DNA of 41,029 bases from a virus: positions 1 through 41,029 of the IMG/VR virus record IMGVR_UViG_3300045141_000064; one strand, given 5' to 3'. The notes beneath the pieces were generated by a model, which was given only the letters and a program-made list of their open reading frames with translations, did not search any database and was not told the origin of the DNA. A program made the position numbers and the translations under genes. This document shows, piece by piece, positions 7,500 to 40,863 of the stretch. Every line of letters begins with the position of its first letter. Within the stretch, counting starts at the first letter, position 1.

Positions 7500-7771
7500 T
7501 CGCCGCGCATGTAGGCCGTGGTCATGACGTTGCCGGTGGCTGGCGTGATCGGGCTGTCGAAGCCGGGACCGCCGAGGCCAAGCACGTCGCCTTGGCAGTT
7601 GGTCCGGCGCGACAGGTCGTAGAACATGCCGAGCACCGGGATGGCGGCAATCGGAACGCCGACCGGCTGCACCACCGGGCGCGGCGGCGGTAGCTTGTGG
7701 ATGCGGACGTGCGTGCGCGCGTCGGCTGGCGAGGCCGCCAGCACCAGCATGATGATCAGCCAGTTCTTCAT
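7478..7771 (-). CDS. Secreted small protein in lysis-like cassette (97 aa)
   Basis: ATG 7771 opens a clear Sec signal peptide (MKNWLIIMLVLAASPADA, about residues 1-18, cleavage after ADA). The mature part is proline- and valine-rich (LPPPRPVVQPVGVPIAAIP) and then carries a Cys-Gly-containing segment with FYDLSRRTNCQGDVLGLGG. There is no lipobox, so it is probably not a lipoprotein o-spanin. It overlaps the upstream coiled-coil gene by four bases (ATGA) and the downstream RlpA-like gene. A periplasmic role during lysis is inferred from location; a spanin-type component remains possible. Confidence 0.6.
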   Translation of the reverse strand: MKNWLIIMLVLAASPADARTHVRIHKLPPPRPVVQPVGVPIAAIPVLGMFYDLSRRTNCQGDVLGLGGPGFDSPITPATGNVMTTAYMRGECGAVPK

Positions 7772-8025
7772 TTCTTGTCTCCCTTGTTCAGGTCGCGCAG
7801 CAGAATTTCCTTCATCTGCTCGATGGTCAACTTGTTGGCGTCGGTCTTGCCTTCCAGCACCGTCAACCGGGTGTCAATCACGACAAGGTGGGGACTGCCC
7901 CTCGTCTCCAACGTGGTCACCCGCGTTTCAAGTTTCACAACGTAGGCCGTCACGCTGAAGATGGCGACCACCAGACCGCCAAGGAAATAGTTCTCCTTGA
8001 TCCACGATGTGACGGCGGTCGTCAT
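7768..8025 (-). CDS. One-helix membrane protein with coiled coil, candidate holin or i-spanin (85 aa)
   Basis: The start is ATG 8025. A single transmembrane segment (FLGGLVVAIFSVTAYVV, about residues 14-30) is followed by a heptad-repeat helix (LETRVTTLETRG, then VIDTRLTVLEGKTDANKLTIEQM). This layout, with an inner-membrane anchor and a periplasmic or cytosolic coiled coil, is found in i-spanins and in XhlA-type hemolysin proteins. Position in the last three genes of the late operon supports a lysis role. No two- or three-helix holin is adjacent; the two-helix protein at 30413-30655 may serve that function. Confidence 0.6.
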   Translation of the reverse strand: MTTAVTSWIKENYFLGGLVVAIFSVTAYVVKLETRVTTLETRGSPHLVVIDTRLTVLEGKTDANKLTIEQMKEILLRDLNKGDKK

Positions 8026-9404
8026 GTGTACGGCGCGGCTGGCGGTGTGAAGTTTGCGGTCCAGCGAGCGAGGCCGTTGCTGATGCGAACCTCGTCAATG
8101 TAGCCGGTAAAAAATGCGTTGCCGGGCGTCGTGTCGCCGGTCCCAATGTTGAGCGGCCCTGTGATTGCCGGAAGCGCACCGGAATAGGTGCCGGTCGCTT
8201 CTGCGATCCCGTTGACGTACAGAGTAAGATTGTTGCCACTTCTGACGGCAGCAATGTGCGTCCACACATTCAAGACAGCAGGGTTGACCGACTGAAGCTG
8301 GACGATGTTGCTGCTCGATACACTGTGAACGAACCTGATGATTTTATCGGTGGCCCTGATTACAAACTTCCAAGCATCTGCGAAACCTGTCGCGGTGCTA
8401 GGGTGCATGATGACCGTGCTGTCGCTTGGTAACGCTGTCGGAAACATCCACGCTTCGACGGTGAAGTCGTTTGCACCAAAGTCCCAGTCAGGGGCTGATG
8501 TCGGGTACGACAGATAATCACCAGTGGCACCAAACTGTGCCGATGCGCCGCCAAACTTTGATTGTGCGGTTGACACTTTCGCATTACCGCCAACAGTCGG
8601 ATTGGGCTTGCCCCATTGCGAAGTGTCGTAAAAAGTTTTGCTCCCGTTCGGGCCGTCCATGTGCAGCAGAAGTCTCGCTGTCAGGTCGGGGTCGGGACCG
8701 TAAGGCTTTGTTGGCGGCGTGAAGTTTGCAGTCCAGCGGGCAATGCCCTTGCTGATGCGGAGTTCTTCGATATAGCCGTTAAAATTCTGGCCGTTCTGCG
8801 CCGCCCCGATGCACAGCGGATTGGCGTTTGACTTGATTGCCAGAGCCGAAGCCCATGTCGATTTGAGAACGCCGTTTCTGAAGGCGTAGAAGTTGCTGCC
8901 CTTGCGACAGACCGCAAGGTGTTGCCATGTGCTTACGACGCCGGGACCGAAGCTTGGCGATGGAAGGCCAGCGGCCCCGTTGGCGATGTCCCACGATGAC
9001 CCGGTCGAAGTCATGTAGATTTCGCCTTGAGCGGAAGTGAACTCCAGAAGGAACGGGGAATAGGTCGTCGATAGATCACGCGAGAGTGGACACCCGGCCC
9101 CCGTCCGGTATTCCCACCAATCAATCGTGAAGTCGCCAGCACCAAATTCCCAATCGGCGCTGTACGGGAAGGTGCAATAGCCACCAGTGTTCAAGTAGCT
9201 CGACGAGCTACCAAGCAACCCGGTGCCAAGTTGCAGATGCGCGGTGCCGCCGACAGTGGCGAGGCCGTGCCTATTGGGAGAGCTGTCTACGATAATTGTC
9301 GAGCCGTCAGTCTGACTGTCGAAATGACACAGCAGCACGGTGAACTGGTCGTTGCCGGGAGAGGCACCGCCACCAAACAACGCTGGTGTGATCCCCGGCA
9401 GCAT
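8022..9404 (-). CDS. Tail-associated protein with two tandem LamG-like domains (460 aa)
   Basis: Two concanavalin A/LamG-type beta-sandwich domains are visible. Each begins with a short hydrophobic strand plus HFD or HMD (TVLLCHFDSQTDG; RLLLHMDGPNG), has a DFTIDWWEY or DFTVEAWMF strand, a W-x-H-x-A-x-x-R segment (WQHLAVCR; WTHIAAVR) and ends with the nearly identical GYIEELRISKGIARWTANFT and GYIDEVRISNGLARWTANFT. Internal duplication is therefore clear. LamG domains often bind sugars, so a receptor-recognition or fibre-tip role is likely. I prefer ATG 9404, in a TGATG overlap with the upstream gene, over the longer start at 9431. Confidence 0.8.
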   Translation of the reverse strand: MLPGITPALFGGGASPGNDQFTVLLCHFDSQTDGSTIIVDSSPNRHGLATVGGTAHLQLGTGLLGSSSSYLNTGGYCTFPYSADWEFGAGDFTIDWWEYRTGAGCPLSRDLSTTYSPFLLEFTSAQGEIYMTSTGSSWDIANGAAGLPSPSFGPGVVSTWQHLAVCRKGSNFYAFRNGVLKSTWASALAIKSNANPLCIGAAQNGQNFNGYIEELRISKGIARWTANFTPPTKPYGPDPDLTARLLLHMDGPNGSKTFYDTSQWGKPNPTVGGNAKVSTAQSKFGGASAQFGATGDYLSYPTSAPDWDFGANDFTVEAWMFPTALPSDSTVIMHPSTATGFADAWKFVIRATDKIIRFVHSVSSSNIVQLQSVNPAVLNVWTHIAAVRSGNNLTLYVNGIAEATGTYSGALPAITGPLNIGTGDTTPGNAFFTGYIDEVRISNGLARWTANFTPPAAPYT

Positions 9405-17548: not shown

Positions 17549-19371
17549 CAGCCCACTCCAACTGTCTGGTAGCGACTGTCGTAGTTGCTCAACGGCTTCG
17601 GGTTATTCAGCGCAAAGAACTGCTGGTTGTCGATGGATGCCTTGGTGATCTTGCCTTCCCGCGTCGGCGTGATGGTCGCGCCTTTCGGCCCGACGGTCAG
17701 AAACACGGTGCCGTAGCGCGCGATCATTCCAAGAACCTGCTGCTTGAACTGCGGGTACTGGTTGCCCGCGATTGCGACACAGCCCTGTGTCATCGGCATG
17801 TTGCCACTTCCTGCGTGCAGTTCGATGCCTTCACGGAAGCGGCCGAGCGTCGGGTCGTAAATTCTGTTGTAATTGATACCCATTGCACCGTGCGCGCGAC
17901 CCCAATCACCCATGATTTCCGGCGTCACCGGGTACGTGCCGTAAGGGATGGACGCAAAGCCGCCGCCGCCGGACCCGAACGTGTAGTGAGTGCCTTCGAC
18001 CGTCATGTCGCCGCCAATCCGCATGGGGCGCTGCGCGTTGTCGGCCGCTGCTGGCGTGTACTGCGGGCCGTACTTGCCGCCGCCCGCGAATGTGCCGCCG
18101 GTCGCACCGATCATTGCCTTGCGGCCAAGCTGCGCGCGGTAGTCTTGGAACGTGCGAGTATCATTGTCCATGTACTCGTGCATCTTCTGGTAGCGCGCTT
18201 CGGCAACGTCGTGATTGGCGTAGGATGGAAACTTGTCCAGACCCTCGTTCTTGGCGCGCGCCAGCGCCTGATCTGAGGTGAGTATCCTGCCGTCCCACAC
18301 CGTCGGGATCAGGTAGGTCTTGTCGCCAACGCCCTGCGTGGTGATGAACAGCGTCGAGCGCGAGCCGTTCGAGTTGTCCACGCCGTTGGCACTGTACAGG
18401 TTGGTCAGGTGGCGCTGGTACAGGTCCTGCTCGACCGGCGTCAGGTTGAGGTCGGTCTTGGCCGCGTTGAAGTTGTCCTGCGGGATGGTCGGCTTGTCCT
18501 GCTCGACACTGAGCATGCTCATGCGCTGCGCGCCGGGACGCACCGACCCCGGCATCGGCAGCGGCTGACCGGGCATCATGACCGGAGGCGCGATGGGTTT
18601 TGGCAGCGCGTCGATGCCAAGTGCCTTGGTCAGTGTTCCCGGCAGCGACAGAACCACCTTTCCGGCTTCCAGTTGCAGCCGCTTGGCTTCCTCGATGTTC
18701 CCAGAGTTGGTGGCGTTCTCGACGCGCAGCTTATACCCGGCGATGATCTGCGACTGAAAATGTTCGGCGGCGTTCACCAGTATGCCGCGCTTGATTTCCA
18801 GCGGCAGCGACAGTTCGTTGACTTGGGCGCGGATAGACCCGGTCACGGCTGGCAGCGTGCCGGGGTCCGCGAACACCGACATGCCTTGCCGCGCGACCTC
18901 ATTCTTCATCTGCGCGTCCACGGCATCGCTGTAGCCCTTGACGGCATCCACCTGATTTTTTGTGTACAGTTTATTCCAGTACAGATGCGCGTTGGTGTCG
19001 GCTATGGTGCGGTACTTTCCGCTGATCGACTGATTGCGTGTTGACCAATCGTTCTGTGCAAAGTCGTTCACCATGCCGGGGATTTTGTAGGCTTCCTCCT
19101 GCGGCAGCGTCGTTTGCAGCCGCAGCATTTCATTGTTGACGGCGACTTCGTGGTCCGACAGCGCCACCTTCGACTTGATTGCCTCCTGCTCGTCCTCTTG
19201 TCCGGTCAGCGCGGTGCCGAGTTTGTCGAGGCCGCTTTCGATGGCTTTGCCAGCCTGAATTTGTGCGGTGCCGATTTCGGAGCCGAACGCCTCCGGCGTT
19301 GCGTGCGGGGTTTTGACGTTTGCCCCCGGCAAATCGCTAATGCTTGGTTCCCAGATAGGGACCTTTACCAT
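17548..19371 (-). CDS. Virion protein with L,D-transpeptidase-like (YkuD-type) domain (607 aa)
   Basis: The first 300 residues are helical and resemble internal virion proteins. Residues about 335-410 contain LFITTQGVGDKTYLIPTVWD and YANHDVAEARYQKMHEYMD, a module frequent in phage structural proteins. Residues about 440-550 carry an L,D-transpeptidase-like core: YGTYPVTPEIMG, GIELHAGSGN and then MTQGCVAI, giving the H519...C531 pair expected for the H-x(n)-(S/T)-x-G-C active site. YkuD enzymes cut and rejoin peptidoglycan stem peptides; some homologues act only as amidases or carboxypeptidases. In a virion this domain would help the ejection apparatus cross the cell wall, replacing the usual transglycosylase. 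Confidence 0.8.
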   Translation of the reverse strand: MVKVPIWEPSISDLPGANVKTPHATPEAFGSEIGTAQIQAGKAIESGLDKLGTALTGQEDEQEAIKSKVALSDHEVAVNNEMLRLQTTLPQEEAYKIPGMVNDFAQNDWSTRNQSISGKYRTIADTNAHLYWNKLYTKNQVDAVKGYSDAVDAQMKNEVARQGMSVFADPGTLPAVTGSIRAQVNELSLPLEIKRGILVNAAEHFQSQIIAGYKLRVENATNSGNIEEAKRLQLEAGKVVLSLPGTLTKALGIDALPKPIAPPVMMPGQPLPMPGSVRPGAQRMSMLSVEQDKPTIPQDNFNAAKTDLNLTPVEQDLYQRHLTNLYSANGVDNSNGSRSTLFITTQGVGDKTYLIPTVWDGRILTSDQALARAKNEGLDKFPSYANHDVAEARYQKMHEYMDNDTRTFQDYRAQLGRKAMIGATGGTFAGGGKYGPQYTPAAADNAQRPMRIGGDMTVEGTHYTFGSGGGGFASIPYGTYPVTPEIMGDWGRAHGAMGINYNRIYDPTLGRFREGIELHAGSGNMPMTQGCVAIAGNQYPQFKQQVLGMIARYGTVFLTVGPKGATITPTREGKITKASIDNQQFFALNNPKPLSNYDSRYQTVGVG

Positions 19372-19892
19372 CAGCTAAACAGGGACAGCGATTGACCCGC
19401 CGACCCTCCCCCTCTCACGAATGAACCGGCCGCCCCGGTGATGCCGCCGATGATTGCGCCCTGCGCGGCGATGTCGCCCGCCTTCTTGGCGTTGATGGCT
19501 TGCATTTCGTCGAGCGTGGCTTGGTCCTTGAACCGCTGGCTCTCGACTGCGCCAGCGTACTGATACTGCTGCACGTCGCCTTGGATGCGCGCGTAGCTTT
19601 GCCCGAACACGGTGACCGGCGTGCCGGTGCCGACCTGCGCTCCCGATGACGCGAACGCCGCGCGCTGGCTGGCGAGCGCGTAGTCTCCCTTGATGGCAAC
19701 GTCCTGCGACTTTTCGGAATACTTGTAGGCTTCGGCGGTGGCGTTGTTGCGCGCGACTGCCGCCTGATACTGCGCGGCTTGTGCTTCAGCGTTTGCTTTC
19801 TGCTGTGCGCCCGCCGCCGCAGCCATCCCGCCGACGATGCTGCCGACCGCAGACACCACCGCACCAAGGACGCCTACGACTGCGAGGCACAT
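19371..19892 (-). CDS. Internal virion protein, T7 gp14-like (173 aa)
   Basis: A hydrophobic, Gly/Ala-rich N-terminus (MCLAVVGVLGAVVSAVGSIV) and a long helical, alanine/glutamine-rich body (QQKANAEAQAAQYQAAVARN) are characteristic of the small internal virion protein that T7-type phages insert into the outer membrane during ejection. The C-terminus again has a glycine-rich hydrophobic segment (GAIIGGITGAAGSFV). It sits directly after tail tubular B, as in T7-like order. The protein begins Met-Cys, as do the short proteins at 28192-29449, perhaps by coincidence. Confidence 0.75.
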   Translation of the reverse strand: MCLAVVGVLGAVVSAVGSIVGGMAAAAGAQQKANAEAQAAQYQAAVARNNATAEAYKYSEKSQDVAIKGDYALASQRAAFASSGAQVGTGTPVTVFGQSYARIQGDVQQYQYAGAVESQRFKDQATLDEMQAINAKKAGDIAAQGAIIGGITGAAGSFVRGGGSAGQSLSLFS

Positions 19893-19896
19893 GCGG

Positions 19897-22365
19897 CTAC
19901 CCTGAAATTCTGTGGCCGACGATCAGCGCGGTGAGCGTGAACGGCAGCGGTTCGTCATGCTCGATCACGATATACCTATCACGGTCCCATTCCCCGTCGA
20001 ACGGCAGCCGCTTGTCGCCGTTGAACAGCGGCACCGCCGTACTCAGTGGCGCGTCGGCGGAACGGTACGGGATGGGGTCCATCACGCCGTTTGCGTTCAT
20101 CAGGTCGGTGCCGTAGGTGCCGCCGATGGAGTTCTGCAAGCGTGCGGTGATTTCGAAAACACGGCCGATCTGGCCCTGCGAGGTGCCGCCTTGCGCGCCC
20201 GCCTCGATGTGCAGCGTGCGGATGCGGCTGGTGAAGCGGTAGCCGACCGTGACCTTCGAGGCCGGGACGTTGAACGTGATGCGTCCGTTGATCACCGGCA
20301 GGTCGTGCAGCGGCACGCCGTCAGCCAGCGCGCTGACGCTGTCGCCATTGAGGTGCCACAGCCCGCTGATCACGTTGGTGGGGTCGCCATCGTATTGCAG
20401 CGCGTTGTCGAGGAAGAAGGCATCTTCCAGCGGGTCGCCGTCGTTCAGCCCCGGCATGCCGACCACGATATGGCGCACCTGCTGCCCGCCGACGAGGTGT
20501 TCCACGATCATCCACAGTTCGTCGTTGTCGGAGCCGGGGATGGAGGCGATGTGTTCGGCAACGCCGTCGCCGCCAAGAATGTGATGGTGCCAGCCCACCA
20601 CCTGCTGGTCGCGCTCGTAGGTCATCGCCACGATTTCGCCGTCGGCGCGCACATACCAGATCATCAGGTCGGGACCGGCGACGTAGGCCCCTTGCAGGAT
20701 GCCGGGGGCGGTAATGTGCTCCGACAGGATGGTCAGGTCGGGGGCGACGTAGCTGTCGGTCTGGAAGTTGTACACAAGTTCGCGCAAGCGCCGCGCCGGG
20801 TTCTGGTTCCAGCCCCGGCGTTGGGCGAACAGGATGGCGGGTCCGGCGCGCACCGGCTTGACGTTGGCGATGCCGAAGGATGTTTCACGAGAAATTTTGA
20901 TGTTGGTGGACGTGATCGCCTCGTTGGTATTGGAGGCCGCCACCGTGTATTCGCCCGAGGTGGCGTTGACCACCAACCGCTTGGTGGTGGACATGAACTT
21001 GATGGCGTCCACCTGATCGGAACTGATGGTATAGTTGTAGGACTGATCGGCCTTGTCGCCGTCCTTGTAGTTCAGGTAGGCGTTGAGCACCGATCCCCAC
21101 AGCGTCGTCGGCTGGTTGGCGGTGTTGCCGGTCACAAGACGCTGTTCGTGAAATGTCCCGGTCGTGGGATAGCCGCGCAGGTCCGACCACGCCCCCTCCT
21201 GCCATTGCGCCGACGAGCGCCCGCCGTAGGCGGTGTAGGGCGTGCGGTACTTGTAGTAGATGGTGGCGTTGGCGTTCTGCGTGTTGACCACGTGCGTGAT
21301 CTGCACGATGCAGTAGCCGGAGTGCTCGTAGCGCATCTGCGCCACTTCGCCGTTGGTGCCGTAGAACAGGTCCACGGTGCCCGACGTGTGGGTCGGGTAG
21401 GTCGCGGTCGATGACATCAGCCCGCCGCCGCCCGATACCACGTAATAGACGTTGCCCTTGTATTCCCAGAACGTGTTGTCACCGACGGTGACGTTTGCGC
21501 CCGGTGCCCACGTAGCGTAGCCGAAGGTGTCGCCGGTTGACTTCTCCCAGATGCGGAACAGCGCGCCGACATGCGCGTCCTGAAATATCGGCTTCGACGC
21601 GGTCAGGATCGCGCCGCCGGATGCAACATCGAGCGACATGGTGTTGGCGAGGTCGGTGTTGAGGTCGAGCCACGGGCCTTCCTCGATGTTGCCGGTGGTC
21701 AGCGTCCAGAACGCATGCTGATAGCGTTTGAGCAACTGGATCGGCCAGTTGTCGCTGAAGATGTACAGCGTGTCGGCCGACTGCGTGAAGGTCATGGTCG
21801 CCACGTCAGAGGCCGTGAAGTAGGTGGCGATTTCATAAACGCGCGACACCGTGCCGCCGCCCGCGTAGACGGCGTAGCTGCTGCTGTCCACCGCGATGGT
21901 GAAGAAGCCGCTGCCGATGGTGGCGACCGTGAACTCGCGATTGTTGAGTTCGTTGGTGCCCATGATGTCGGTGGCGATGATGCGGTCGCCAACGTGGAAG
22001 GCGTGACCGGGCGCGTTGATCTGCGTCGTGGTCGCGCCGTGGACCACCCCGGTGACGGCGTACTGCACGTCGTAGATGATGCCGCGATCCTTGAAGAAGC
22101 GGATGTACCCCGGCCCGAACTCGATCATGTAGGCTTGCGTGGTCGAGAACACGAACGGCACCAAGATCGCGTTCGGGTTGTTGTCCTTGACGTTCGACAC
22201 GTTGAGGGTTCCGCCGCGCTTGCGTGCGCCGCCCTGCGGCAACACTGTCACGTTGGTGAGTTCGCGCGCACCGTTCTGATACTTGGCAAGATCAACGCGA
22301 CCGTACACGCGCGGAGAAATTTCCCCGGCCGTGAAGTTCGTGAGGATGGAGTGGACGGTTGCCAT
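19897..22365 (-). CDS. Tail tubular protein B, T7 gp12-like nozzle protein (822 aa)
   Basis: The N-terminal block TNFTAGEISPRVYGRVDLAKYQ, about residues 9-30, followed by GARELTNVTVLPQGGARKRGG, is the signature of podovirus tail tube/nozzle proteins. The full length (822 aa) and mostly beta composition fit that family. It forms the distal tail tube beneath the gp11-like ring and anchors the fibres. It follows the tail tubular A gene by three bases and precedes the internal virion genes. Confidence 0.9.
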   Translation of the reverse strand: MATVHSILTNFTAGEISPRVYGRVDLAKYQNGARELTNVTVLPQGGARKRGGTLNVSNVKDNNPNAILVPFVFSTTQAYMIEFGPGYIRFFKDRGIIYDVQYAVTGVVHGATTTQINAPGHAFHVGDRIIATDIMGTNELNNREFTVATIGSGFFTIAVDSSSYAVYAGGGTVSRVYEIATYFTASDVATMTFTQSADTLYIFSDNWPIQLLKRYQHAFWTLTTGNIEEGPWLDLNTDLANTMSLDVASGGAILTASKPIFQDAHVGALFRIWEKSTGDTFGYATWAPGANVTVGDNTFWEYKGNVYYVVSGGGGLMSSTATYPTHTSGTVDLFYGTNGEVAQMRYEHSGYCIVQITHVVNTQNANATIYYKYRTPYTAYGGRSSAQWQEGAWSDLRGYPTTGTFHEQRLVTGNTANQPTTLWGSVLNAYLNYKDGDKADQSYNYTISSDQVDAIKFMSTTKRLVVNATSGEYTVAASNTNEAITSTNIKISRETSFGIANVKPVRAGPAILFAQRRGWNQNPARRLRELVYNFQTDSYVAPDLTILSEHITAPGILQGAYVAGPDLMIWYVRADGEIVAMTYERDQQVVGWHHHILGGDGVAEHIASIPGSDNDELWMIVEHLVGGQQVRHIVVGMPGLNDGDPLEDAFFLDNALQYDGDPTNVISGLWHLNGDSVSALADGVPLHDLPVINGRITFNVPASKVTVGYRFTSRIRTLHIEAGAQGGTSQGQIGRVFEITARLQNSIGGTYGTDLMNANGVMDPIPYRSADAPLSTAVPLFNGDKRLPFDGEWDRDRYIVIEHDEPLPFTLTALIVGHRISG

Positions 22366-26087: not shown

Positions 26088-27914
26088 TTACTGCCTGAAG
26101 GCCTGACGGGCGTCGCCCGGAGTTCCCAGACCGCCCGCGCCGCCCTTCATCGCGCCGCCTGCAATCGAGCCGATCAGGTCCGCGATGGATTGGCCGCCCT
26201 GCGCTGGCGGCGGCGGGGCCTGCGCCGGAGGGCCGCCCTGCGGCTGGCCGGGAGGCTGCGGCATCGGCATCTGCTGCGCGGTGTTGACGGTGTTGACGGT
26301 CTGCTGGCCCGCGCTCGCCACGCTGTCCATGCCCGCGCCGCCGTCGCGGAACGCCTTCGCCAGCATCGGGATCATCTGCATGATGCGCTGCTGGTTCATC
26401 TGCTGGCCCTGCTGCGCGGTCTGCCCATCGTCCTTCAACATGGCGTCGTCCACGCCGAACCAGTCGAACAGCATCGGCGTGACTTTCGACATGTCGATGG
26501 GCGCGAACAGTTGCTGCGCCACTTCCGGCCCCAGCTTGGCGAGCGGTTCGAGCACGCCGATCACCTGCTCGAAGCCCTGCGCGATCTGCGACTTCTGCGC
26601 GCGCGCCAGCGGCGACTGATACTCGATCCGCATGTCCGCGCCTTGGATTTCCGGCGGCGCTTTGTCGAAGGCGTTCATCCTCGACATGATGCCGAACACG
26701 CGCTCGACCAGCGGGTTCAGGAACTCGTTTTCTAAGCGTCCCAAGACCGGCCCAAGCAGGCGCATGCGTTCCGTCTGCCGCTGGATAACTTCTGTCGCCG
26801 TCATCTTGAAGTCTCCAACAAATTGCACTTGGTCCACAAACATCGTGGTCCTGATGGCGTTGTCGAGCTTCATGATGTACTCGCCCGCGTAGGGCAACTG
26901 CGCGCTCGTCGGCATCTGGCCGATTTCAGACTTGTTGCGGAGGTAAGTCAGCGAGCCGGGATATTGTCTGACGGGTCCGACGAGGCCTTCGTGCGGCACC
27001 GTCAACGGCGGGTCCACGGCCTTCTCTGCCGCCCGCATCACGGTTCGCGTTGCAGCGTTCGCGACCTTCACCTGCGGCAATGCCGTCATCAGCGGCGAGC
27101 GCCCGTGGACTTCGCCGCTGATCACCCACCAGCGCGGCACCACGTAGGGCATTTCCTCCGAGCCGCTTTCCTCCACCACGTTGCACTCTGCTTCCTCGAC
27201 GTAGCAGATCGCGATGGGCATGTGCTGCGGGGTCTTGTTGGTGCCGTCGCGTTCGTAGTCCTCGCGCGGCGTGCAGATGTTGAGCACCTTGAACTTGTCG
27301 TCGTAGTTGCCCTTGTCGTACAGCGCCATCACCTTGGGGCTGACGTTGTCGCCCCAGATTTGAACCATCTGGCGCACCGTGTACATGCTGTCGCGCATGA
27401 CGGTATCGACGAAGCCGTACTCGTTCTCCGCGATGCAGCACTCGAAGATCGGATAGGTGCGGTTGAACAGGTGGCCGGTCTTCTTCTGGCCGACGTACAT
27501 GACGGCGGTGCCGAGCGATGCCATGTCTTCCAGCAACTGGTTGGCCTGTGAGTGAAACGCCGTGTGCGGCGAACTGAGCGCGTTGCTGATCCCCTTCGAC
27601 ACGCCGTTGGTCCAGTGCTTGTTGCCCTCCTGCTCGTCAAGCTGCTCGTTGGTGAGCCGGATGTTGAGCCAGTTGGTGGCGGGGTTCATCAGCATGCCGT
27701 GCATGGCGGCGGCCAGCGTCTGCACGCACTGGATGCCGATAGGATTATATATCTGCGGTGAGATGCGGCGGTCGCCGTCGGCGCGCGGACCAATCGCTCC
27801 CATGCGGCGCGGCGCACCGTAGCGCGCGCAGTCTTCCCACATGTTGCGCCAGTTGGCGCGGTCGCTGTCCAGCTTGTGGTAACGGCTGATCAGTTTTTCC
27901 GCGTCAACCGGCAT
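26088..27914 (-). CDS. Portal protein (head-to-tail connector, T7 type)
   Basis: This 608-residue protein shows the head-to-tail connecting family pattern: WRNMWEDCARYGAPRR near residues 22-37, YNPIGIQCVQTLAAAMHGML (about 56-75), NWLNIRL, LEDMASLGTAVMYV (about 129-142), VPRWWVISGEVHGRSPLMTA (about 260-280) and TATEVIQRQTERMRLLGPVL (about 383-402). The C-terminal 90 residues are low complexity (Gln/Met/Pro/Gly). The dodecameric portal nucleates head assembly and forms the DNA channel. It overlaps the zincin-like gene upstream by 11 bases. Confidence 0.93.
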   Translation of the reverse strand: MPVDAEKLISRYHKLDSDRANWRNMWEDCARYGAPRRMGAIGPRADGDRRISPQIYNPIGIQCVQTLAAAMHGMLMNPATNWLNIRLTNEQLDEQEGNKHWTNGVSKGISNALSSPHTAFHSQANQLLEDMASLGTAVMYVGQKKTGHLFNRTYPIFECCIAENEYGFVDTVMRDSMYTVRQMVQIWGDNVSPKVMALYDKGNYDDKFKVLNICTPREDYERDGTNKTPQHMPIAICYVEEAECNVVEESGSEEMPYVVPRWWVISGEVHGRSPLMTALPQVKVANAATRTVMRAAEKAVDPPLTVPHEGLVGPVRQYPGSLTYLRNKSEIGQMPTSAQLPYAGEYIMKLDNAIRTTMFVDQVQFVGDFKMTATEVIQRQTERMRLLGPVLGRLENEFLNPLVERVFGIMSRMNAFDKAPPEIQGADMRIEYQSPLARAQKSQIAQGFEQVIGVLEPLAKLGPEVAQQLFAPIDMSKVTPMLFDWFGVDDAMLKDDGQTAQQGQQMNQQRIMQMIPMLAKAFRDGGAGMDSVASAGQQTVNTVNTAQQMPMPQPPGQPQGGPPAQAPPPPAQGGQSIADLIGSIAGGAMKGGAGGLGTPGDARQAFRQ

Positions 27915-28191
27915 GGTTCATCGCCTTCCTCGCTTCGATTTCATACGGGCTATTCCAGTAGCCGTAGCGCACCAGATACCAGAACGTCTTGACCCAATAC
28001 GGGATGAAGCCGTCGCGTCGGCGTTGCAGCCAGTGGCAGATTTCGTGGCGGCGCAGCGCGCGGTTGTTGAAATACTTCGGCGTGATGAAGATGCCCCAAG
28101 GCGTGTACACGCCGGAGAACCCGAACGTCCACAGGAACGTGCCCCAGAACGGACCTGCCTTGCGTATTTTTGGCAGGATGCCGGTGAGCAT
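27904..28191 (-). CDS. Small zincin-like protein with HEICH motif (95 aa)
   Basis: A zinc-metallopeptidase signature HExxH is present as RRHEICHWLQ (about residues 48-57), and the later NSPYEIEARK (about 80-89) provides the downstream glutamate typical of gluzincins and of DUF4157-like mini-peptidases. The N-terminal half is aromatic and hydrophobic and may contact membrane (GTFLWTFGFSGVYTPWGIFI). Immediately upstream of the portal gene, it might mature head proteins; a moonlighting or inactive fold cannot be excluded. The length is close to that of the minimal catalytic core. Confidence 0.65.
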   Translation of the reverse strand: MLTGILPKIRKAGPFWGTFLWTFGFSGVYTPWGIFITPKYFNNRALRRHEICHWLQRRRDGFIPYWVKTFWYLVRYGYWNSPYEIEARKAMNHAG

Positions 28192-28395
28192 TTACTGACC
28201 CAACAGTGTCTTGGCGGTGGCCGCCGTCTGCGTCTGTCCGAGCGTGCCAGCGGCAGCGTCGGACCCGGCGGCGGCGGTGCGAAGAACGGCACCGCCTGCG
28301 GGCGCGCCTTCGGCCACGGGTGTCGGTAGTGGACCCGGCGGCGGCGGGGTCGGAGCCGGTGCCGCTTGCTGGGGAGGGGGTGAGCCGCCGCACAT
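28192..28395 (-). CDS. MCGG...KTLLG short protein, paralogue e (67 aa)
   Basis: One of five consecutive genes for short proteins that begin Met-Cys followed by glycines (here MCGGSPPP), continue as a Pro/Ala-rich disordered linker, and in four of five end in a KTLLG-like tail (AKTLLGQ here). ATG 28395 follows AGGAGAATAGTC, which is almost the same as the leader of paralogue a. Function unknown. The N-terminal cysteine could be a site for disulphide or thioester attachment, and the C-terminal motif could be a docking peptide; both ideas are inference. Confidence 0.65.
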   Translation of the reverse strand: MCGGSPPPQQAAPAPTPPPPGPLPTPVAEGAPAGGAVLRTAAAGSDAAAGTLGQTQTAATAKTLLGQ

Positions 28396-28405
28396 GACTA
28401 TTCTC

Positions 28406-28642
28406 CTATGCGCCTAACAGGGTTTTTGGACCGGCGAAGGCACCGGCTTGCCGGTTGACAGGGGCTGCCGGTTGCGGTGCGTCGGGGGTGGCCGGGGATA
28501 CGCTTTGAGAAATCGGCTGCGCGCTGGAAGCGGCTGGCGCTGCGGTCGTGCTCGCGGCGGCGGCGGCCGGGGCTTGCGGGTGCGCGGCGTCCCACCGCTG
28601 CTGGAACACTGGCGCGATAAACCCTGCTGGTCCGCCACACAC
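28406..28642 (-). CDS. MCGG...KTLLG short protein, paralogue d (78 aa, GTG start)
   Basis: The true start is GTG 28642, read as Met, preceded by AGGAGGACAGTA; only this start gives the family N-terminus (Met-Cys-Gly-Gly-Pro). A longer open frame runs upstream but belongs to no gene. The linker is Ala/Pro/Ser-rich with FIAPVFQQRW near the start, and the C-terminus is GPKTLLGA. The start overlaps the stop of paralogue c by one base (TAGTG). Confidence 0.65.
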   Translation of the reverse strand: MCGGPAGFIAPVFQQRWDAAHPQAPAAAAASTTAAPAASSAQPISQSVSPATPDAPQPAAPVNRQAGAFAGPKTLLGA

Positions 28643-28854
28643 TACTGTCCTCCTAGGGTTGTCTTCGGCGCTTTGTTGGCGGCGTCGATCAGCATTTCTC
28701 CGCCCATGCGGCCGGTGGTGTTGGGATCGGCGCGACCGCCTTGATACCTGTAGGCCTGCGAGGGGTCGGGCGCGACCTTGTTCACGTCGATCACTCCCAC
28801 GTTGGGCGCGGGTGCGACCGGCGCGGTCTGTGAACCTCCACCACCGAAACACAT
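28642..28854 (-). CDS. MCFGGG...KTTLGG short protein, paralogue c (70 aa)
   Basis: It starts MCFGGGGSQTAP, has a segment VGVIDVNKVAPDPSQAYRY that is less repetitive than in its relatives, and ends KTTLGGQ. ATG 28854 lies one base after the stop of paralogue b; no strong ribosome binding site is seen, so translation is probably coupled. The central RADPNTTGRMGGEMLIDAAN segment suggests a short folded or binding motif. Function unknown. Confidence 0.65.
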   Translation of the reverse strand: MCFGGGGSQTAPVAPAPNVGVIDVNKVAPDPSQAYRYQGGRADPNTTGRMGGEMLIDAANKAPKTTLGGQ

Positions 28855-28855
28855 G

Positions 28856-29224
28856 TTATTCGTTGTCCACTAATGTCTGGTCGCGTTTGCGTTTTGGCAC
28901 GTCGAGCCGTGGGTTGATGTTGTCACCGGCAAAGTTGTAGGTGGCGTAGGGTTTCTTGAGAACGGCTTCCGGGGTCTGCGCCTCGATGTTGCCAGCAAGT
29001 TTCGAGGGCGCGGCGGGCGTGAGCATGCTGCTGCCCGGTGCTGCGGTCTTGACCGGCTCCTGTTGCGGGTTGACCGGAACGACTGCGGGTGCGGGTGCGG
29101 CGGCCGGTGGCGGCGTCGGCGTCGGGTTGAACGCCGGGGCGACAGAGCCGCCCGCGCCGGACTGACTGCCGATGCCCATATTGACCGGCGAGCCGCCCGA
29201 CTGTCCGCCGCCCGCGAAGCACAT
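28856..29224 (-). CDS. MCFAGGG short protein, paralogue b (122 aa)
   Basis: The longest member of the array: MCFAGGGQSGG start, a long Pro/Ala/Val linker, then a charged C-terminus (NINPRLDVPKRKRDQTLV) in place of the usual KTLLG tail, although DQTLV sits at the equivalent place. ATG 29224 follows GGGGA. A GNIEAQTPEAVLKKPYATYN segment may form a short helix. Function unknown. Confidence 0.65.
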   Translation of the reverse strand: MCFAGGGQSGGSPVNMGIGSQSGAGGSVAPAFNPTPTPPPAAAPAPAVVPVNPQQEPVKTAAPGSSMLTPAAPSKLAGNIEAQTPEAVLKKPYATYNFAGDNINPRLDVPKRKRDQTLVDNE

Positions 29225-29227
29225 GGG

Positions 29228-29449
29228 TCATGTCCCCAACAAGGTCTTCGATGTCTTGGTGGTCGAACTATCGAGGCCGCCGAGGCCCGAAGGCCCGACG
29301 GTGGACAAAAATCCCGACGCCTGCGCTGCCCGTATCTGATCGACGTTGGCCTGTCGTCCCGCTGCGCCTTCGTCCATCTTGGACGGCGGCGGCGGCGGGG
29401 CCGCAGGTGTCGGGGGTGGTGAACTTGATCCGCCTCCGCCGAAGCACAT
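29228..29449 (-). CDS. MCFGGG...KTLLG short protein, paralogue a (73 aa)
   Basis: It starts MCFGGGGSSSPPP and ends TSKTLLGT. ATG 29449 follows AAGGAGAATAGCC, matching the leader of paralogue e. The middle includes MDEGAAGRQANVDQIRAAQA, a short helix likely to be folded. The linker is proline-rich. It is the promoter-proximal member of the five-gene array that lies between small accessory genes and the zincin/portal genes. Confidence 0.65.
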   Translation of the reverse strand: MCFGGGGSSSPPPTPAAPPPPPSKMDEGAAGRQANVDQIRAAQASGFLSTVGPSGLGGLDSSTTKTSKTLLGT

Positions 29450-31427: not shown

Positions 31428-32891
31428 TCAGTAATACGCTTCGTCGATGGCTTCGATCTGTTCGCCGTAGGCATAGTGCCGCCGCGCTTGTTCCGGCGCA
31501 AGCGGGTCGTAGCCTTCGTCGAGCGCCTTGGAGTGCGTGCGGTAGTCAACGGCGTATTCTCCGCCAGCGAATGTGAGGCAGAACGCGTCACCGGCATCGG
31601 GCGAGCGCAGGCCCCGTTTTTTCATATCGTCCTTGCTCTCGATCTGCAACTTGCCGGTCGAAAGCGCCTTGTAGGTGGGTCCGACCAGATCGCTGATCAG
31701 CGCAGGATCGTTGATGATCTTGCAGTCGCGCGCCATGAACCACAGCCGCGCCTTCCACCACAGTTCGTCCCTCAATCGCAGGTAACGGTCAGGCTCCGAC
31801 GATAGTTCCGCGACGTTGACGCCGAACACGGGCACGCCGAGTTCGCGCAGTCTGTCCACCACGCCAGCGCCTATTCCGATCACGTCGCAGTTGATGGCCG
31901 ACGGCTTGAGCACGTCCGGTGTCTCGTACCACTCGCGCATGACGATCCCGCAGGTTTCCATGGTGTCGCGGTGCTTCCACATCTTGGTCAAGTCCGGGAT
32001 GACGTTGCCGCGCCGCTTGACGAGGGCGCACCTGTCGTCGCCAAAGCGCGCAACGTCCAGCCCCCACACCATCGAGCGCGAGGAAATTCCCTCGACATCG
32101 CGGCGGATGGCGGCCTCGATGATGTCAAGCGGGATCACGGCGTTGTCCTCCGAAGTCGGAAACTCGCCCAGAACGCGGATGCGATAGACGTTGGAATTTT
32201 CCCCGTACTCCCTTGCCATCTGCTCCGGGTAGCTTTCGGACGACCACGGGTTCTTGCGCCACGGCCAGTGCAGGCCGTGCCACAGCCATCGGTTCTCCTT
32301 GAAGGCGCGGGCAAAGTACCCGGTGGACTTGTTGGGGTTGCCGATCATCAGCGCGGTCGCGCCCTTCGAGGACATGGCACCCGAGGCGATTTCGAAGATC
32401 ACGTCCTCCATGCCGGAGGCTTCCTCCAACAGAAACAGCAGGTTCTCCGAGTGAAAGCCCTGCAAGGCTTCCGGGTTCGACTTGCTCGCGGTGCGCGCCA
32501 CCATGAAGCAGTCCTCCGGCATACTCCGCAGGGTGATGCGTTCCAGCCCGATGTCGTACTGCTCACGCAGCAACGTCGGGAGTGATCTGCCCCACTTCAT
32601 CAGTTCGGCCCACGTCACGTCGCGAAGCTGGTCCTGCGTATTGGCGGCCACCGGGATTTTGCAGGGGATGCGCGTGGTCATGAAGAACCAGCCGATCCAC
32701 GCCAGAAGCGCCGTCTTGCCCTGATCGTGCGCGGCCCTGATGGCGACATGGCCGTGGTCGCGCAACGCAATCAAGGCCTCGACCTGATGCGGTTCTGGAA
32801 CGGCGCAAAGAACCCCGGTCACGAACAACAGTGGGTCGTTGGCGACGGCGCAGGCCTTCCAGTTCTCCATCCTCTCTGTGTCAGTTAGCAT
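31428..32891 (-). CDS. Terminase large subunit (TerL)
   Basis: The ATPase part has a Walker A variant in AIRAAHDQGKTALL (about residues 50-63) and a Walker B in NLLFLLEEASGM (about 157-168). The nuclease part has DVARFGDDRCAL with its conserved Asp, and CDVIGIGAG and SPDAGDAF further on, giving the RNase H-like acidic triad. With about 487 residues the length is normal. ATG 32891 or 32870 are both plausible starts; the open frame reaches 32954. TerL packages DNA through the portal and cuts it. The gene is separated from the TerS-like gene by a small gene. Confidence 0.9.
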   Translation of the reverse strand: MLTDTERMENWKACAVANDPLLFVTGVLCAVPEPHQVEALIALRDHGHVAIRAAHDQGKTALLAWIGWFFMTTRIPCKIPVAANTQDQLRDVTWAELMKWGRSLPTLLREQYDIGLERITLRSMPEDCFMVARTASKSNPEALQGFHSENLLFLLEEASGMEDVIFEIASGAMSSKGATALMIGNPNKSTGYFARAFKENRWLWHGLHWPWRKNPWSSESYPEQMAREYGENSNVYRIRVLGEFPTSEDNAVIPLDIIEAAIRRDVEGISSRSMVWGLDVARFGDDRCALVKRRGNVIPDLTKMWKHRDTMETCGIVMREWYETPDVLKPSAINCDVIGIGAGVVDRLRELGVPVFGVNVAELSSEPDRYLRLRDELWWKARLWFMARDCKIINDPALISDLVGPTYKALSTGKLQIESKDDMKKRGLRSPDAGDAFCLTFAGGEYAVDYRTHSKALDEGYDPLAPEQARRHYAYGEQIEAIDEAYY

Positions 32892-33071
32892 TGAGCGAAC
32901 GTGCCCCACGGTGAAAAAATTTTTTCGGAGAGAAGGGGAGTGCCCCCCGCACACCGGCCGCGTCGCGCAGGCGGGGTCGGGGTCGGGTGGCCCTCGAAAA
33001 TCGCGGGAGGGTCGAGGGTTGGCGCGTGTGCGCGGCGCTGCCGTGTCTCCTGCGCACGTCGGCCGGGATGG
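32892..33071. other. GC-rich stretch between TerL and the small gene upstream
   Basis: About 180 bases without a convincing gene on either strand. It contains an A/T run (AAAAAATTTTTT at about 32915-32926) upstream of TerL that could separate transcripts or bend DNA. I see no further structure. Confidence 0.4.
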
Positions 33072-38222: not shown

Positions 38223-38285
38223 TAGCCGTTGACGAGCGCGCGGTGCGGTGCTGTGGTAGGGCGTGGCAACCACAAAGAGGCTGAA

Positions 38286-38903
38286 ATGAAGAAAACCGTA
38301 CTACTGGCGGCACTCGCCCTGTTGGCGGCGGCACCAGCGGGTGCTGCGACCGTTACCGGCACCTACACGGCATCGCTGAGCATGCAATCGGGTGGCTTTG
38401 CCACGCTGGAAAGCAACTTGGCTTCGCCGTTCAGTCTGACATCCGGGGCAACACGCTCGCTGTTCCTGACCGTCGATCCCGGTGGGATATGCCTCTACAA
38501 CTGCAATCCCACGCACGGCACCATCACTGTCACGTTCTCGAACCTGACAGTGAACGGCCACAACTTCGGTGGCTTTACCGAAACTGGCCTATTCACCGCC
38601 AACTACTCCAACCAGACCGACAGCGTGGTCTGGGCGGGGGCGACGGCACAATCTGGCTTCGGCTTGGACCAAGACGGCTCAACGCCGCTGGTTTTTACCG
38701 ACACCATGAACGGCGGCGCTTTCGGCACACTCAAGATCAACTTGGTCGATGGTGCCGATTGGAACGTGCAGACATGGGCCGAGGCTGGTTTTCAGGCTGC
38801 GGCCACCACACCACTCCCGGCAGCCGTTTGGCTGTTCGGCAGCGCATTGGGCGGGGGCGCTCTCGTGCTCCGCCGTCGTCGTAAAAAAGAGGCAACCACA
38901 TGA
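38286..38903 (+). CDS. PEP-CTERM-type secreted protein 1 (205 aa)
   Basis: ATG 38286 follows AAAGAGGCTGAA. A Sec signal peptide (MKKTVLLAALALLAAAPAGA) leads into a beta-rich domain of Thr/Gly/Ser-rich sequence. The last 31 residues are a PEP-CTERM-type signal: TPLPAAVWLFGSALGGGALV followed by the basic run RRRRKK and a short tail, matching the VPLPAAVWLFGSGL form of the exosortase signal. Such proteins are exported, recognised by an inner-membrane exosortase, cleaved and released or anchored with exopolysaccharide. A pair of cysteines occurs in GGICLYNCNP. The phage copy may alter the surface of the infected cell. It overlaps the next gene by ATGA. Confidence 0.85.
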   Translation: MKKTVLLAALALLAAAPAGAATVTGTYTASLSMQSGGFATLESNLASPFSLTSGATRSLFLTVDPGGICLYNCNPTHGTITVTFSNLTVNGHNFGGFTETGLFTANYSNQTDSVVWAGATAQSGFGLDQDGSTPLVFTDTMNGGAFGTLKINLVDGADWNVQTWAEAGFQAAATTPLPAAVWLFGSALGGGALVLRRRRKKEATT

Positions 38904-39577
38904 AGAAGCTGCTGATTGCTTCGGTTGCGGTGCTGGCGCTGTCTGCTCCCGCGTGGGCCGACACCATCACTATGACCGCGAAGGTTGACGGCGTCACAGT
39001 CGCCGTCGATAGCAGCGCCGATGGAAACTTGGACATCAGTGCCCAATCCTTCGGCTCTGCCTTCAACCTCAACTCGTTGAGCATCAACACCGAGACGTTT
39101 CTGGCGGTGCCGGACCTGCTCTCGACCAACACGCTCAACATCAATCAGTCGGTTGGTGGCAATCACCAACTGACAATCGACATCAAGGGGTTCGGGTTGA
39201 CCGGCCCCGCTGCTGTCGAGGCGTTGCTGTCTTCGTTCAGCGTCACGGGCCTGACAGCGGGCTGGTCAGCCCAAGAGCAGACCTTCATTGACGGCGTCCT
39301 GCTGGCCGACACTGGCGTGTTCACCGCCACGTCCGACAGTGCGTTCTCCGTCAACAGTGTGCTGGTCGGCGGCCTGTTCACCGCTGAAGCCCTCTACACG
39401 ATCAACTCGGTCGGTATCGGGCGCTTCAACGGTGGCATCGACATCAGCGCGGCGTCAACGACACCGCTGCCGGGTGCGATCTGGCTGTTCGGCAGCGCGC
39501 TTGCTGCCTTCGGTCTGGTGACACACGGCAGGAAGAAGCCAAAGTCGGCGTGGGACATTTCGCCCCGCGCGGCGTAA
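38900..39577 (+). CDS. PEP-CTERM-type secreted protein 2 (225 aa)
   Basis: Start ATG 38900 overlaps the previous stop. Signal peptide MKKLLIASVAVLALSAPAWA, then a beta-rich domain. The sorting signal TPLPGAIWLFGSALAAFGLV begins at residue 188 and is followed by THGRKKPK and then a further ten residues (SAWDISPRAA), longer than the usual PEP-CTERM tail. The bodies of the two proteins share little clear sequence apart from composition, so they are partners rather than recent duplicates. Both proteins are expressed from one unit next to a Cro-like regulator, suggesting a lysogenic-conversion or superinfection-exclusion role; this is inference. Confidence 0.82.
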   Translation: MKKLLIASVAVLALSAPAWADTITMTAKVDGVTVAVDSSADGNLDISAQSFGSAFNLNSLSINTETFLAVPDLLSTNTLNINQSVGGNHQLTIDIKGFGLTGPAAVEALLSSFSVTGLTAGWSAQEQTFIDGVLLADTGVFTATSDSAFSVNSVLVGGLFTAEALYTINSVGIGRFNGGIDISAASTTPLPGAIWLFGSALAAFGLVTHGRKKPKSAWDISPRAA

Positions 39578-39771: not shown

Positions 39772-40863
39772 CTAGGCGGCCTGTGCGATGCGCTTCCACT
39801 CGTTCGAGTTGAGTTCGATCACCTGTGCGCCGATGCGTTCCAGATCGGTCGCCCGGTCGTAGTCATCGACGTGCTGCGATGCTGCGGTGATCGCGTTGTA
39901 CAAGCCGAAGCGTGAGAGGTCGCCGCCGCTTGCCAGTTCCTTGAGGACCGACTTGCCCTCGACCTCGTTGAGGCCGAACGTCTTGCCAGCCATCGACACC
40001 ACCTTGACCAGATCGTCGCTTTCGATCTTGTCGGCCTGTGTGCCCTCGACCTTGCACGCCAGCGCCTCGAACTGAACCTTGTCGAAGGCCGCGCGTGTCA
40101 CGTCCACAAGCTGCGCCATCGACGCCACCTGTGTCTTGCGCTTCGTCTCGTCGGTGAGCATCGTGTAGTGCGCCTCGCTCACCAGTTCGTGCCGCGCGCC
40201 GACATGGTACTTGCGAACAGACCGTTCGCTGAAGGTCGCGAGGTTCGAGCAGAAGCTGTCGTAGAGGCCGGTCAACACGTTCGCGCCACCGTAGCCGACT
40301 TCGCTGTCGGAAATGGTGATCGCGGGCGACAGGCAGCGCACGATGTTGTGCTTGCCGTCACCGAACTTGCCGCCGATGGCAGCGAGTTCGCGCGTGACCT
40401 TCTTGTCCACGCACTTGATGTACATGCGCGTGTCGGTGACCTGACACGACATGACATCGACATCGAGGTCGAGCAGCACCGGCAGCAAAGAAGCTGCCAT
40501 GTCCTCGTACTCCATGTCGGTGCGGAACTTGTCGGAGCGCACCGCGCGCAAGTGACCATCCTGCGTGCGGAACAGTTGCTTGGTGGCGTTCTTGCGGAAC
40601 CACGTGTTGACGTTGTCGGCCAGCAGCGAGGGGTCTTCCGCCAGCATCTTGTCGTAGTAGGCCTTCGGGATTTTGGTCACCTCCGCGATCTGCGCGTGAC
40701 CGATCTTGTTCACCCCGAACTCCATGTCGCCAACCGTGACCGTTGGTTCGGCCAGCGGCTGCATTTCGACGTTCTTGGTGTTGGCGATGAAGTCCTTTTT
40801 TGTCTCCGCGCGCCGTGCGATTTCGGCGGCGAACTCTTGGATGGAATGTATTCCTGCCTTCAT
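39772..40863 (-). CDS. DUF932-family phage protein, copy 2 (363 aa)
   Basis: The complete copy of the family also present at 1-528. ATG 40863 follows AGGAGTACGCT. The product has the DUF932 layout (phage/plasmid-like TIGR03299 type): an N-terminal helical region, the LFRTQDGHLRAVRSDKFRTD strand pair (about residues 96-115), TDTRMYIKCVDKKVTRELAA, and a C-terminal VTRAAFDKVQFEAL region. Length is near normal. It is flanked by its own sigma-70-like promoter with perfect TATAAT and by a terminator, so it is a monocistronic unit likely to be highly expressed. The function of the family is unknown; association with plasmids and phage early regions hints at DNA metabolism. Confidence 0.88.
   Translation of the reverse strand: MKAGIHSIQEFAAEIARRAETKKDFIANTKNVEMQPLAEPTVTVGDMEFGVNKIGHAQIAEVTKIPKAYYDKMLAEDPSLLADNVNTWFRKNATKQLFRTQDGHLRAVRSDKFRTDMEYEDMAASLLPVLLDLDVDVMSCQVTDTRMYIKCVDKKVTRELAAIGGKFGDGKHNIVRCLSPAITISDSEVGYGGANVLTGLYDSFCSNLATFSERSVRKYHVGARHELVSEAHYTMLTDETKRKTQVASMAQLVDVTRAAFDKVQFEALACKVEGTQADKIESDDLVKVVSMAGKTFGLNEVEGKSVLKELASGGDLSRFGLYNAITAASQHVDDYDRATDLERIGAQVIELNSNEWKRIAQAA

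What the first reader, a model, noticed from the sequence alone, without database searches (positions are those of the whole stretch)
28192..29449. Tandem array of five short MC(F)GG...KTLLG proteins
Five consecutive genes encode 67-122 aa proteins that share only the two ends: Met-Cys-Gly/Phe-x-Gly-Gly at the N-terminus and, in four, K-T-(L/T)-L-G near the C-terminus, with variable Pro/Ala-rich linkers between. Two share nearly identical ribosome binding sites (AGGAGAATAGyC), indicating tandem duplication. One needs a GTG start and is easily missed. Fixed ends with a variable linker suggest flexible tethers: a reactive N-terminal Cys plus a C-terminal docking motif. I know of no described family with this architecture.
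Basis: seen in the sequence. Interest (0 to 1): 0.75.

Follow-up and report, generated by a model that had tools for sequence, protein, structure and literature searches.

The report
Small portal-linked phage proteins, five copies
Five neighbouring genes in this short-tailed phage encode small, floppy proteins of a family that sits just before the portal gene in phages from Salmonella epsilon15 to ocean Pelagibacter phages; what they do has never been tested, and their layout suggests they bridge the DNA-ejection machinery inside the virion, as two small phage T7 proteins do.

Summary
In detail: five minus-strand ORFs (28192-29449) start Met-Cys and four end K-T-(L/T)-L-G; simulated windows of the same composition gave no such ending. 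It is not an undescribed architecture. The five belong to, or are satellites of, a widespread uncharacterised family, PHROG 831, which includes epsilon15 gp3 and Pelagibacter phage HTVC010P gp03/gp04. In IMG/VR surveys the C-terminal module (STxLTGxxG...K[TS]LLGx-stop) lies upstream of a T7-type portal gene in every testable case, usually after terL. The N-terminus is less conserved: MCxGG in many lineages, MGS(I/L)FKPKMP, membrane-helix/coiled-coil or other N-termini elsewhere, and in two relatives of the window the Cys is not at position 2. Multi-copy sets (2-5) recur; in this clade g5, g3 and g1 are conserved while middle members turn over, keeping the ends. Best reading: flexible virion tethers at the portal/nozzle vertex, working like T7 gp6.7 (N-terminus on portal barrel) and gp7.3 (C-terminus on nozzle). 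Homology to those T7 proteins was tested and not shown; virion location is inferred.

The parts
29228..29449 (-). g5: 73 aa, MCFGGGG / Pro-rich / helix-prone middle / STVGPSGLGG / SKTLLGT; the member closest to PHROG 831
   Evidence: phrog_831 E 2.6e-4 aligned end to end; orthologs in relatives 68-88% identical; AlphaFold pTM 0.26
28856..29224 (-). g4: 122 aa, MCFAGGG..., ends KRKRDQTLVDNE; the only member without K-T-x-L-G
   Evidence: ortholog in L002/L020, both ends conserved
28642..28854 (-). g3: 70 aa, MCFGGGG...PKTTLGGQ
   Evidence: orthologs in L013, L014, L020; profile match of its C-terminal 28 columns to the family, hhalign probability 97.1%
28406..28642 (-). g2: 78 aa, GTG start overlapping the g3 stop, MCGGPAGF...PKTLLGA; lineage-specific middle member
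   Evidence: AGGAGG Shine-Dalgarno and start/stop overlap; position occupied by members with unrelated linkers in L014/L022 and L023
28192..28395 (-). g1: 67 aa, MCGG / Pro-rich / AAGTLGQ / AKTLLGQ; last member of the array, nearest the portal
   Evidence: orthologs in L002, L005, L013, L014 and others; profile match of its C-terminal 18 columns to the family, hhalign probability 97.8%, E 9.6e-13
27904..28191 (-). 95 aa protein with HEICH motif (zincin-like), between the array and the portal
   Evidence: phrog_37302 E 6.7e-14, unknown function; HEICH read directly from the translation
26088..27914 (-). portal protein (T7-type head-tail connector), 608 aa
   Evidence: Pfam PF12236 Head-tail_con E 1.9e-114
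31428..32954 (-). terminase large subunit, upstream of the array
   Evidence: phrog_2 E 2.3e-44
19897..22365 (-). tail tubular protein B / nozzle, the inferred partner of the C-terminal module
   Evidence: phrog_376 tail protein E 9.6e-184; assignment as the T7 gp12 counterpart from order and size (inference)
19371..19892 (-). gp14-like internal virion protein, also starting Met-Cys
   Evidence: phrog_418 internal virion protein E 2.3e-18

Best explanation
The array is an expanded, diversified set of the small pre-portal proteins (PHROG 831; epsilon15 gp3) that accompany T7-type portals in podoviruses. They are natively extended polypeptides built into the virion at the portal/tail-nozzle vertex: the N-terminal segment (MC-x-GG or PK[IMP]xP, then a Pro-rich arm) lies along one component of the vertex (most likely the portal barrel or core proteins), the C-terminal module (STxLTGxxG...KTLLG) docks into another (most likely the adaptor/nozzle junction), and the proteins help assemble the vertex and leave with, or ahead of, the DNA. 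This is how T7 gp6.7 (residues 2-15 on the portal barrel) and gp7.3 (C-terminal residues 84-98 on the gp12 nozzle) work. Shown: family, synteny, the conserved C-terminal module, lack of a predicted fold. Inferred: virion location, docking partners, ejection. The five copies probably share equivalent sites, the linker being free to change.
For: Synteny independent of the ends: 80/80 epsilon15-type and 74/77 HTVC010P-type portal loci carry a member just upstream. Synteny independent of the N-terminus: a scan for the C-terminal module alone gave 117 placeable hits, 109 with a portal within 2 kb downstream and 8 cut by contig ends; the same pattern with spacing off by one base gave 0 hits. Two-ended scan: 80/80 in-frame proteins, 77 with portal downstream, 3 cut. 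The KTLLG ending was found nowhere else in 2.5 Mb of loci apart from one 30 aa chance ORF. MC starts: 243/1288 ORFs in the 3 kb before portals versus 25/2941 elsewhere (redundant sequences). T7 precedent: gp6.7 starts MCFSPKIKTPK, gp7.3 ends GKKSLSVARSSGGGINI, both encoded just before the portal, structures and ejection in PMC11784390, virion proteomics in phiPsa17 PMC4517105. Similar layout in other T7-order phages: P-SSP7_023 MCIFRAPKPP..., HTVC019P gp27 MCGSRPKMPP...SALNTSSGLNI. Four family members match the P-SSP7_023 PHROG, best E 1.7e-4.
Against: Profile comparison with T7 gp6.7 and gp7.3 families is not significant (hhalign probabilities 1-2%), and the HMM signal to gp7.3 largely disappears against shuffles that keep local composition (30 hits versus mean 18, max 28). 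No paper found reports a PHROG 831 protein in a virion, and no solved structure matches. Read-through AlphaFold of a family gene with its portal kept the small protein at pLDDT 30-59. The genes lie next to terL, so a packaging role is not excluded.
Confidence: 0.5

Rival explanations
1. Packaging or assembly factors that are not in the mature virion: small unfolded adaptors that help load the portal into the procapsid or couple terminase to the portal, then leave.
For: Strict position between terL and portal; not among the virion proteins listed for a phage with a related portal, OVC8 (PMC4802629), though that 12% SDS-PAGE could hardly show 7 kDa proteins.
Against: All testable members accompany a T7-type portal, i.e. 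ejectosome podoviruses, rather than terminases in general; T7 proteins in the same place are virion proteins.
Confidence: 0.25
2. The C-terminal module is a targeting tag and the N-terminal parts are different payloads delivered to the host envelope or cytoplasm with the DNA.
For: The same C-terminus follows Pro-rich arms, hydrophobic-helix plus coiled-coil N-termini (BPP-1 bbp22, L054, L336), coiled coils (L306) and longer regions (L039 181 aa, L078 154 aa, L321 up to 307 aa). Middle members of the window-type array turn over.
Against: No payload resembles a known enzyme or toxin in the few members scanned; most are low-complexity arms of about 70 aa.
Confidence: 0.15
3. Lipidated or disulphide-linked anchors working through the single N-terminal Cys.
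For: One Cys per protein, at position 2, in all five; no Cys in the linkers of 62 diverse members; T7 gp6.7 and gp14 and the window gp14-like protein also start MC.
Against: No signal peptide for lipidation; HTVC010P-type members have Gly at position 2 and g5 of L020/L023 has an N-terminal extension before the Cys.
Confidence: 0.07
4. Unexpressed or spurious ORFs of a GC-rich, low-complexity region.
For: 62% GC and Pro/Ala-rich composition.
Against: Purifying selection on orthologs, e.g. pN/pS about 0.13 over most of the gene and 0 at the C-terminus in epsilon15-type genes; conserved synteny and Shine-Dalgarno sites.
Confidence: 0.01

Closest known systems
PHROG 831 (epsilon15 gp3, HTVC010P gp03 and gp04; unknown function)
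   Same: Length about 70 aa, MC or MG start, Pro-rich arm, STxLTGxxG and KTLLGx end, gene immediately before the portal; g5 matches it directly, g1 and g3 through their C-termini
   Different: Usually one copy (epsilon15) or two (HTVC010P); here five diverged copies, four of which are too far from the PHROG profile to be detected one by one, and one (g4) lacks the KTLLG end
T7 gp6.7 (Pfam PF17570, T7-like_gp67; PDB 9jyy, 9jyz, 9jz0)
   Same: MC start, with a PKI motif shared by some relatives; 88 aa; mostly extended; gene shortly before the portal gene
   Different: No significant profile similarity; no KTLLG module; T7 terL is not adjacent
T7 gp7.3 (Pfam PF11653, VirionAssem_T7; PDB 9jyz)
   Same: Small, basic stretch followed by a conserved C-terminal docking segment (GKKSL...), gene shortly before the portal
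   Different: MG start and Lys-rich helix; similarity not above local-composition controls
Prochlorococcus phage P-SSP7_023 (phrog_13568) and Pelagibacter phage HTVC019P gp27
   Same: MC start, PK[PM]P, Pro-rich arm, basic C-terminal segment, gene directly before the portal
   Different: C-terminus resembles T7 gp7.3 rather than KTLLG; link to PHROG 831 is weak (4 members, best E 1.7e-4)

Membership tests
PHROG 831 | Profile match over the whole protein (g5) | tested here: met
   g5 E 2.6e-4, residues 8-72 on profile 8-69/70; 47/47 members of a diverse alignment that includes g5
PHROG 831 | Profile match for g1 and g3 | tested here: met
   Only at the C-terminal module, hhalign 97.8% and 97.1%; hmmscan of single sequences finds nothing at E<=1
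PHROG 831 | Profile match for g2 and g4 | tested here: inconclusive
   No PHROG 831 hit with hmmscan; g2 has MCGG and KTLLGA ends, g4 has no KTLLG
PHROG 831 | Gene between terL and a PF12236-type portal | tested here: met
   general rule
T7 gp6.7 (PF17570) | Profile match | tested here: not met
   No Pfam hit; hhalign probability 1.3%
T7 gp6.7 (PF17570) | Virion core protein bound to the portal barrel through its N-terminus, ejected at infection | not testable with these tools
   Known for T7 from PMC11784390; read-through AlphaFold gave no docking
T7 gp7.3 (PF11653) | Profile match | tested here: not met
   No Pfam hit; hhalign 2.2%; HMM score not clearly beyond local-composition shuffles
T7 gp7.3 (PF11653) | C-terminal segment anchored between adjacent nozzle subunits | not testable with these tools
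   No complex prediction available
Bacterial lipoprotein | Signal peptide with lipobox before the Cys | tested here: not met
   Cys is residue 2, nothing precedes it except Met

The most novel reading that the evidence does not exclude
The module STxLTGxxG...K[TS]LLG-stop is a portable C-terminal docking tag that places whatever is fused in front of it at the portal/nozzle vertex of T7-type podoviruses, and arrays such as this one are banks of interchangeable, rapidly replaced N-terminal payloads or tethers that leave with the DNA.
Probability: 0.25. Interest if true: 0.78.

Novelty: new variant of a known kind. Interest (0 to 1): 0.5.

Why it matters
PHROG 831 is near-universal in the two groups of short-tailed phages surveyed, that of the Salmonella model phage epsilon15 and the marine HTVC010P type, yet has no assigned function. 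If it fills the role of T7 gp6.7/gp7.3, it supplies the missing small vertex proteins of non-T7 podoviruses and gives a ready genetic test in epsilon15. If the C-terminal module is a portable virion tag, it would be a short handle for loading chosen proteins into phage particles.

Tried and rejected
tblastn of g5 against annotated phages: no match, probably because of low-complexity filtering. First two-ended pattern with too short a gap: 0 hits, my error. Profile alignment of distant portals was too divergent for a collection scan. Genome-contig scan for prophage relatives found none, so the host is unknown. PDB profile search: only chance matches. hhalign to gp6.7/gp7.3 not significant; an apparent HMM enrichment for gp7.3 (66 of 305 members) was set aside after dereplication and local shuffles. 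P[KR][IMVPLA] near the N-terminus, expected from gp6.7, is only mildly enriched (17 of 62, shuffle mean 6, max 17). Read-through fusion of a family gene to its portal in AlphaFold: no docking. Codon analysis of HTVC010P gp04-type N-termini was unreliable because starts and alignment vary. Literature: nothing on KTLLG in phages; in the P-SCSP1u and PhiM1 structure papers searches for gp6.7/gp7.3-type proteins found nothing. The query used (ARRRGRASTILTGPQGLGAPANTAKKTLLGQ) was a consensus written from memory of such phage proteins; it served only to find real members, which were then read from the records.

Full report
What is there. The window is a 41,029 bp IMG/VR virus record, a podovirus with a PF12236 portal, related in its portal to HTVC010P (37% identity), epsilon15 and BPP-1 (28%). 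On the minus strand the order is terL (32954-31428), several small genes, the five-gene array (29449-28192), a HEICH zincin-like ORF, portal, capsid genes, tubular proteins A and B, a gp14-like protein and large ORFs. The five ORFs are real as described: MC starts, exactly one Cys each, four with K-T-(L/T)-L-G ends; the fifth, g4, ends KRKRDQTLVDNE. Simulated sequence gave no C-terminal motif at all. g2 starts at GTG, with AGGAGG upstream and a one-base overlap with the g3 stop.

It is a catalogued but unstudied family. g5 matches PHROG 831. All 47 members of a diverse alignment match PHROG 831, including epsilon15 gp3 (MCIGSKPSVPAAPEVQAAPQEQDAAVVSSRDDEERRRRAAAGRSSTLLTGAQGDTSTANTSGKTLLGQ) and HTVC010P gp03; gp04 matches too. 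g1 and g3 match the family profile at the C-terminal module. The function of PHROG 831 is listed as unknown, no PDB entry matches and no paper in the library was found that discusses it.

Synteny, tested three ways. (a) Two-ended pattern: 80 hits, all in-frame proteins of 64-74 aa with a Pro-rich arm, 77 with a portal downstream on the same strand and the other three at contig ends; 65 with terL upstream. (b) Portal-anchored, blind to the N-terminus and to the scan pattern: 80/80 epsilon15-type loci hold exactly one member, always MC; 74/77 HTVC010P-type loci hold one to three, nearly all MG; 20/20 window-type loci hold two to five. (c) C-terminal module alone: 117 placeable hits, 109 with a portal within 2 kb and 8 cut off, while the same pattern with a one-base spacing error matched nothing in the collection. 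Within 2.5 Mb of loci the KTLLG ending occurs elsewhere only once, in a 30 aa chance ORF.

Which end matters. The C-terminal module is the constant: STxLTGxxG, 8-9 residues, K[TS]LLG, usually one residue, stop. In the window only g5 keeps a recognisable middle part (STVGPSGLGG), g1 a remnant (AAGTLGQ). The module follows quite different N-termini: MCxGG Pro-rich arms; MGS(I/L)FKPKMP arms; a hydrophobic helix plus Gln-rich coiled coil (BPP-1 bbp22, L054 and relatives, L336); coiled coils (L306); Lys-rich helices (L285, L387, L395); longer regions (L039, L078, L321). Of 89 distinct proteins found by the module alone, 35 start MC and 40 MG. In epsilon15-type genes the last seven codons show no amino acid change in 63 distinct sequences (pN 0.000, pS 0.139). 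The Cys is not universal, and in L020 and L023 an HNH gene lies upstream and g5 has an N-terminal extension before CFGGGG. In the window's own clade g5, g3 and g1 are conserved, while the middle of the array differs: g4 and g2 in the window, MCLAGPGM...KALLGG and MCGTLPW...KTLLGQ in L014/L022, MCGANIP...KTLLGV in L023. The ends are kept, the linker is free.

How it most likely works. T7 has two small, mostly unfolded proteins encoded shortly before its portal. Cryo-EM places residues 2-15 of 12 gp6.7 copies around the portal barrel and the C-terminal residues 84-98 of six gp7.3 copies between adjacent nozzle subunits; both leave the virion at infection (PMC11784390); both are found by virion proteomics in phiPsa17 (PMC4517105). 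gp6.7 begins MCFSPKIKTPK; family members include MCFGGPKIPTP, MCFGGAKPKIPKPP and MCGFSKPKISTPPP. HTVC019P gp27 and P-SSP7_023 have an MC/PK arm and a basic C-terminal segment in a single protein at the same place. By position, size, disorder and two-ended conservation PHROG 831 proteins look like the counterparts, and the array like several such tethers sharing equivalent sites. This is an analogy: hhalign and HMM tests with composition controls do not establish homology, and AlphaFold of a read-through family gene plus portal monomer left the small protein disordered, which is weak evidence because the true site would be a 12-fold or 6-fold ring. Virion location, partners and ejection are inferred.

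Verdict. Real, ordinary in kind, unusual in copy number; it points to an unstudied protein of a model phage that could be tested at once.

Noticed in passing
window 38229-38903 and 38900-39577, + strand: Two tandem secreted-looking proteins with C-terminal VPLPA/PEP-CTERM-like signatures (TTPLPAAVWLFGSALGGGALVLRRRRKK; TTPLPGAIWLFGSALAAFGLVTHGRKK) in a phage record; the first has a sub-threshold match to floc_PepA (E 0.0045), no relevant Pfam match.
   Followed up: partly
window 19371-19892, - strand; T7 gp14 (L107); HTVC019P gp35 (L121); P-SSP7_033 (L119): gp14-like internal virion proteins also start Met-Cys (GTG start in P-SSP7), as do T7 gp6.7 and the array; an MC start may be a shared trait of ejected podovirus proteins.
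   Followed up: partly
L020 around 7682-8219 and L023 around 7926-8225: An HNH-like gene sits directly upstream of g5 in L020 and its 3' end overlaps an N-terminally extended g5, seen also in L023; L020 g3 is likewise extended (MFEYRDRFICYCFGGG).
   Followed up: partly
L054, L057, L084, L098, L103 and relatives: Three-gene sets with one long member (hydrophobic helix, Gln-rich coiled coil, then the KTLLG module) like BPP-1 bbp22, whose best PHROG matches are to Rz-like spanins.
   Followed up: no
L013 7098-7736 (= L026 8001-8639): g5 is frameshifted after SKMDEG; either a contig error or a broken copy.
   Followed up: no
window 39772-40863 (-) and about 1-702 (antisense ORF): Similar genes (DUF932-like by eye) at both ends of the record, which would be adjacent if the genome is circular.
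   Followed up: no
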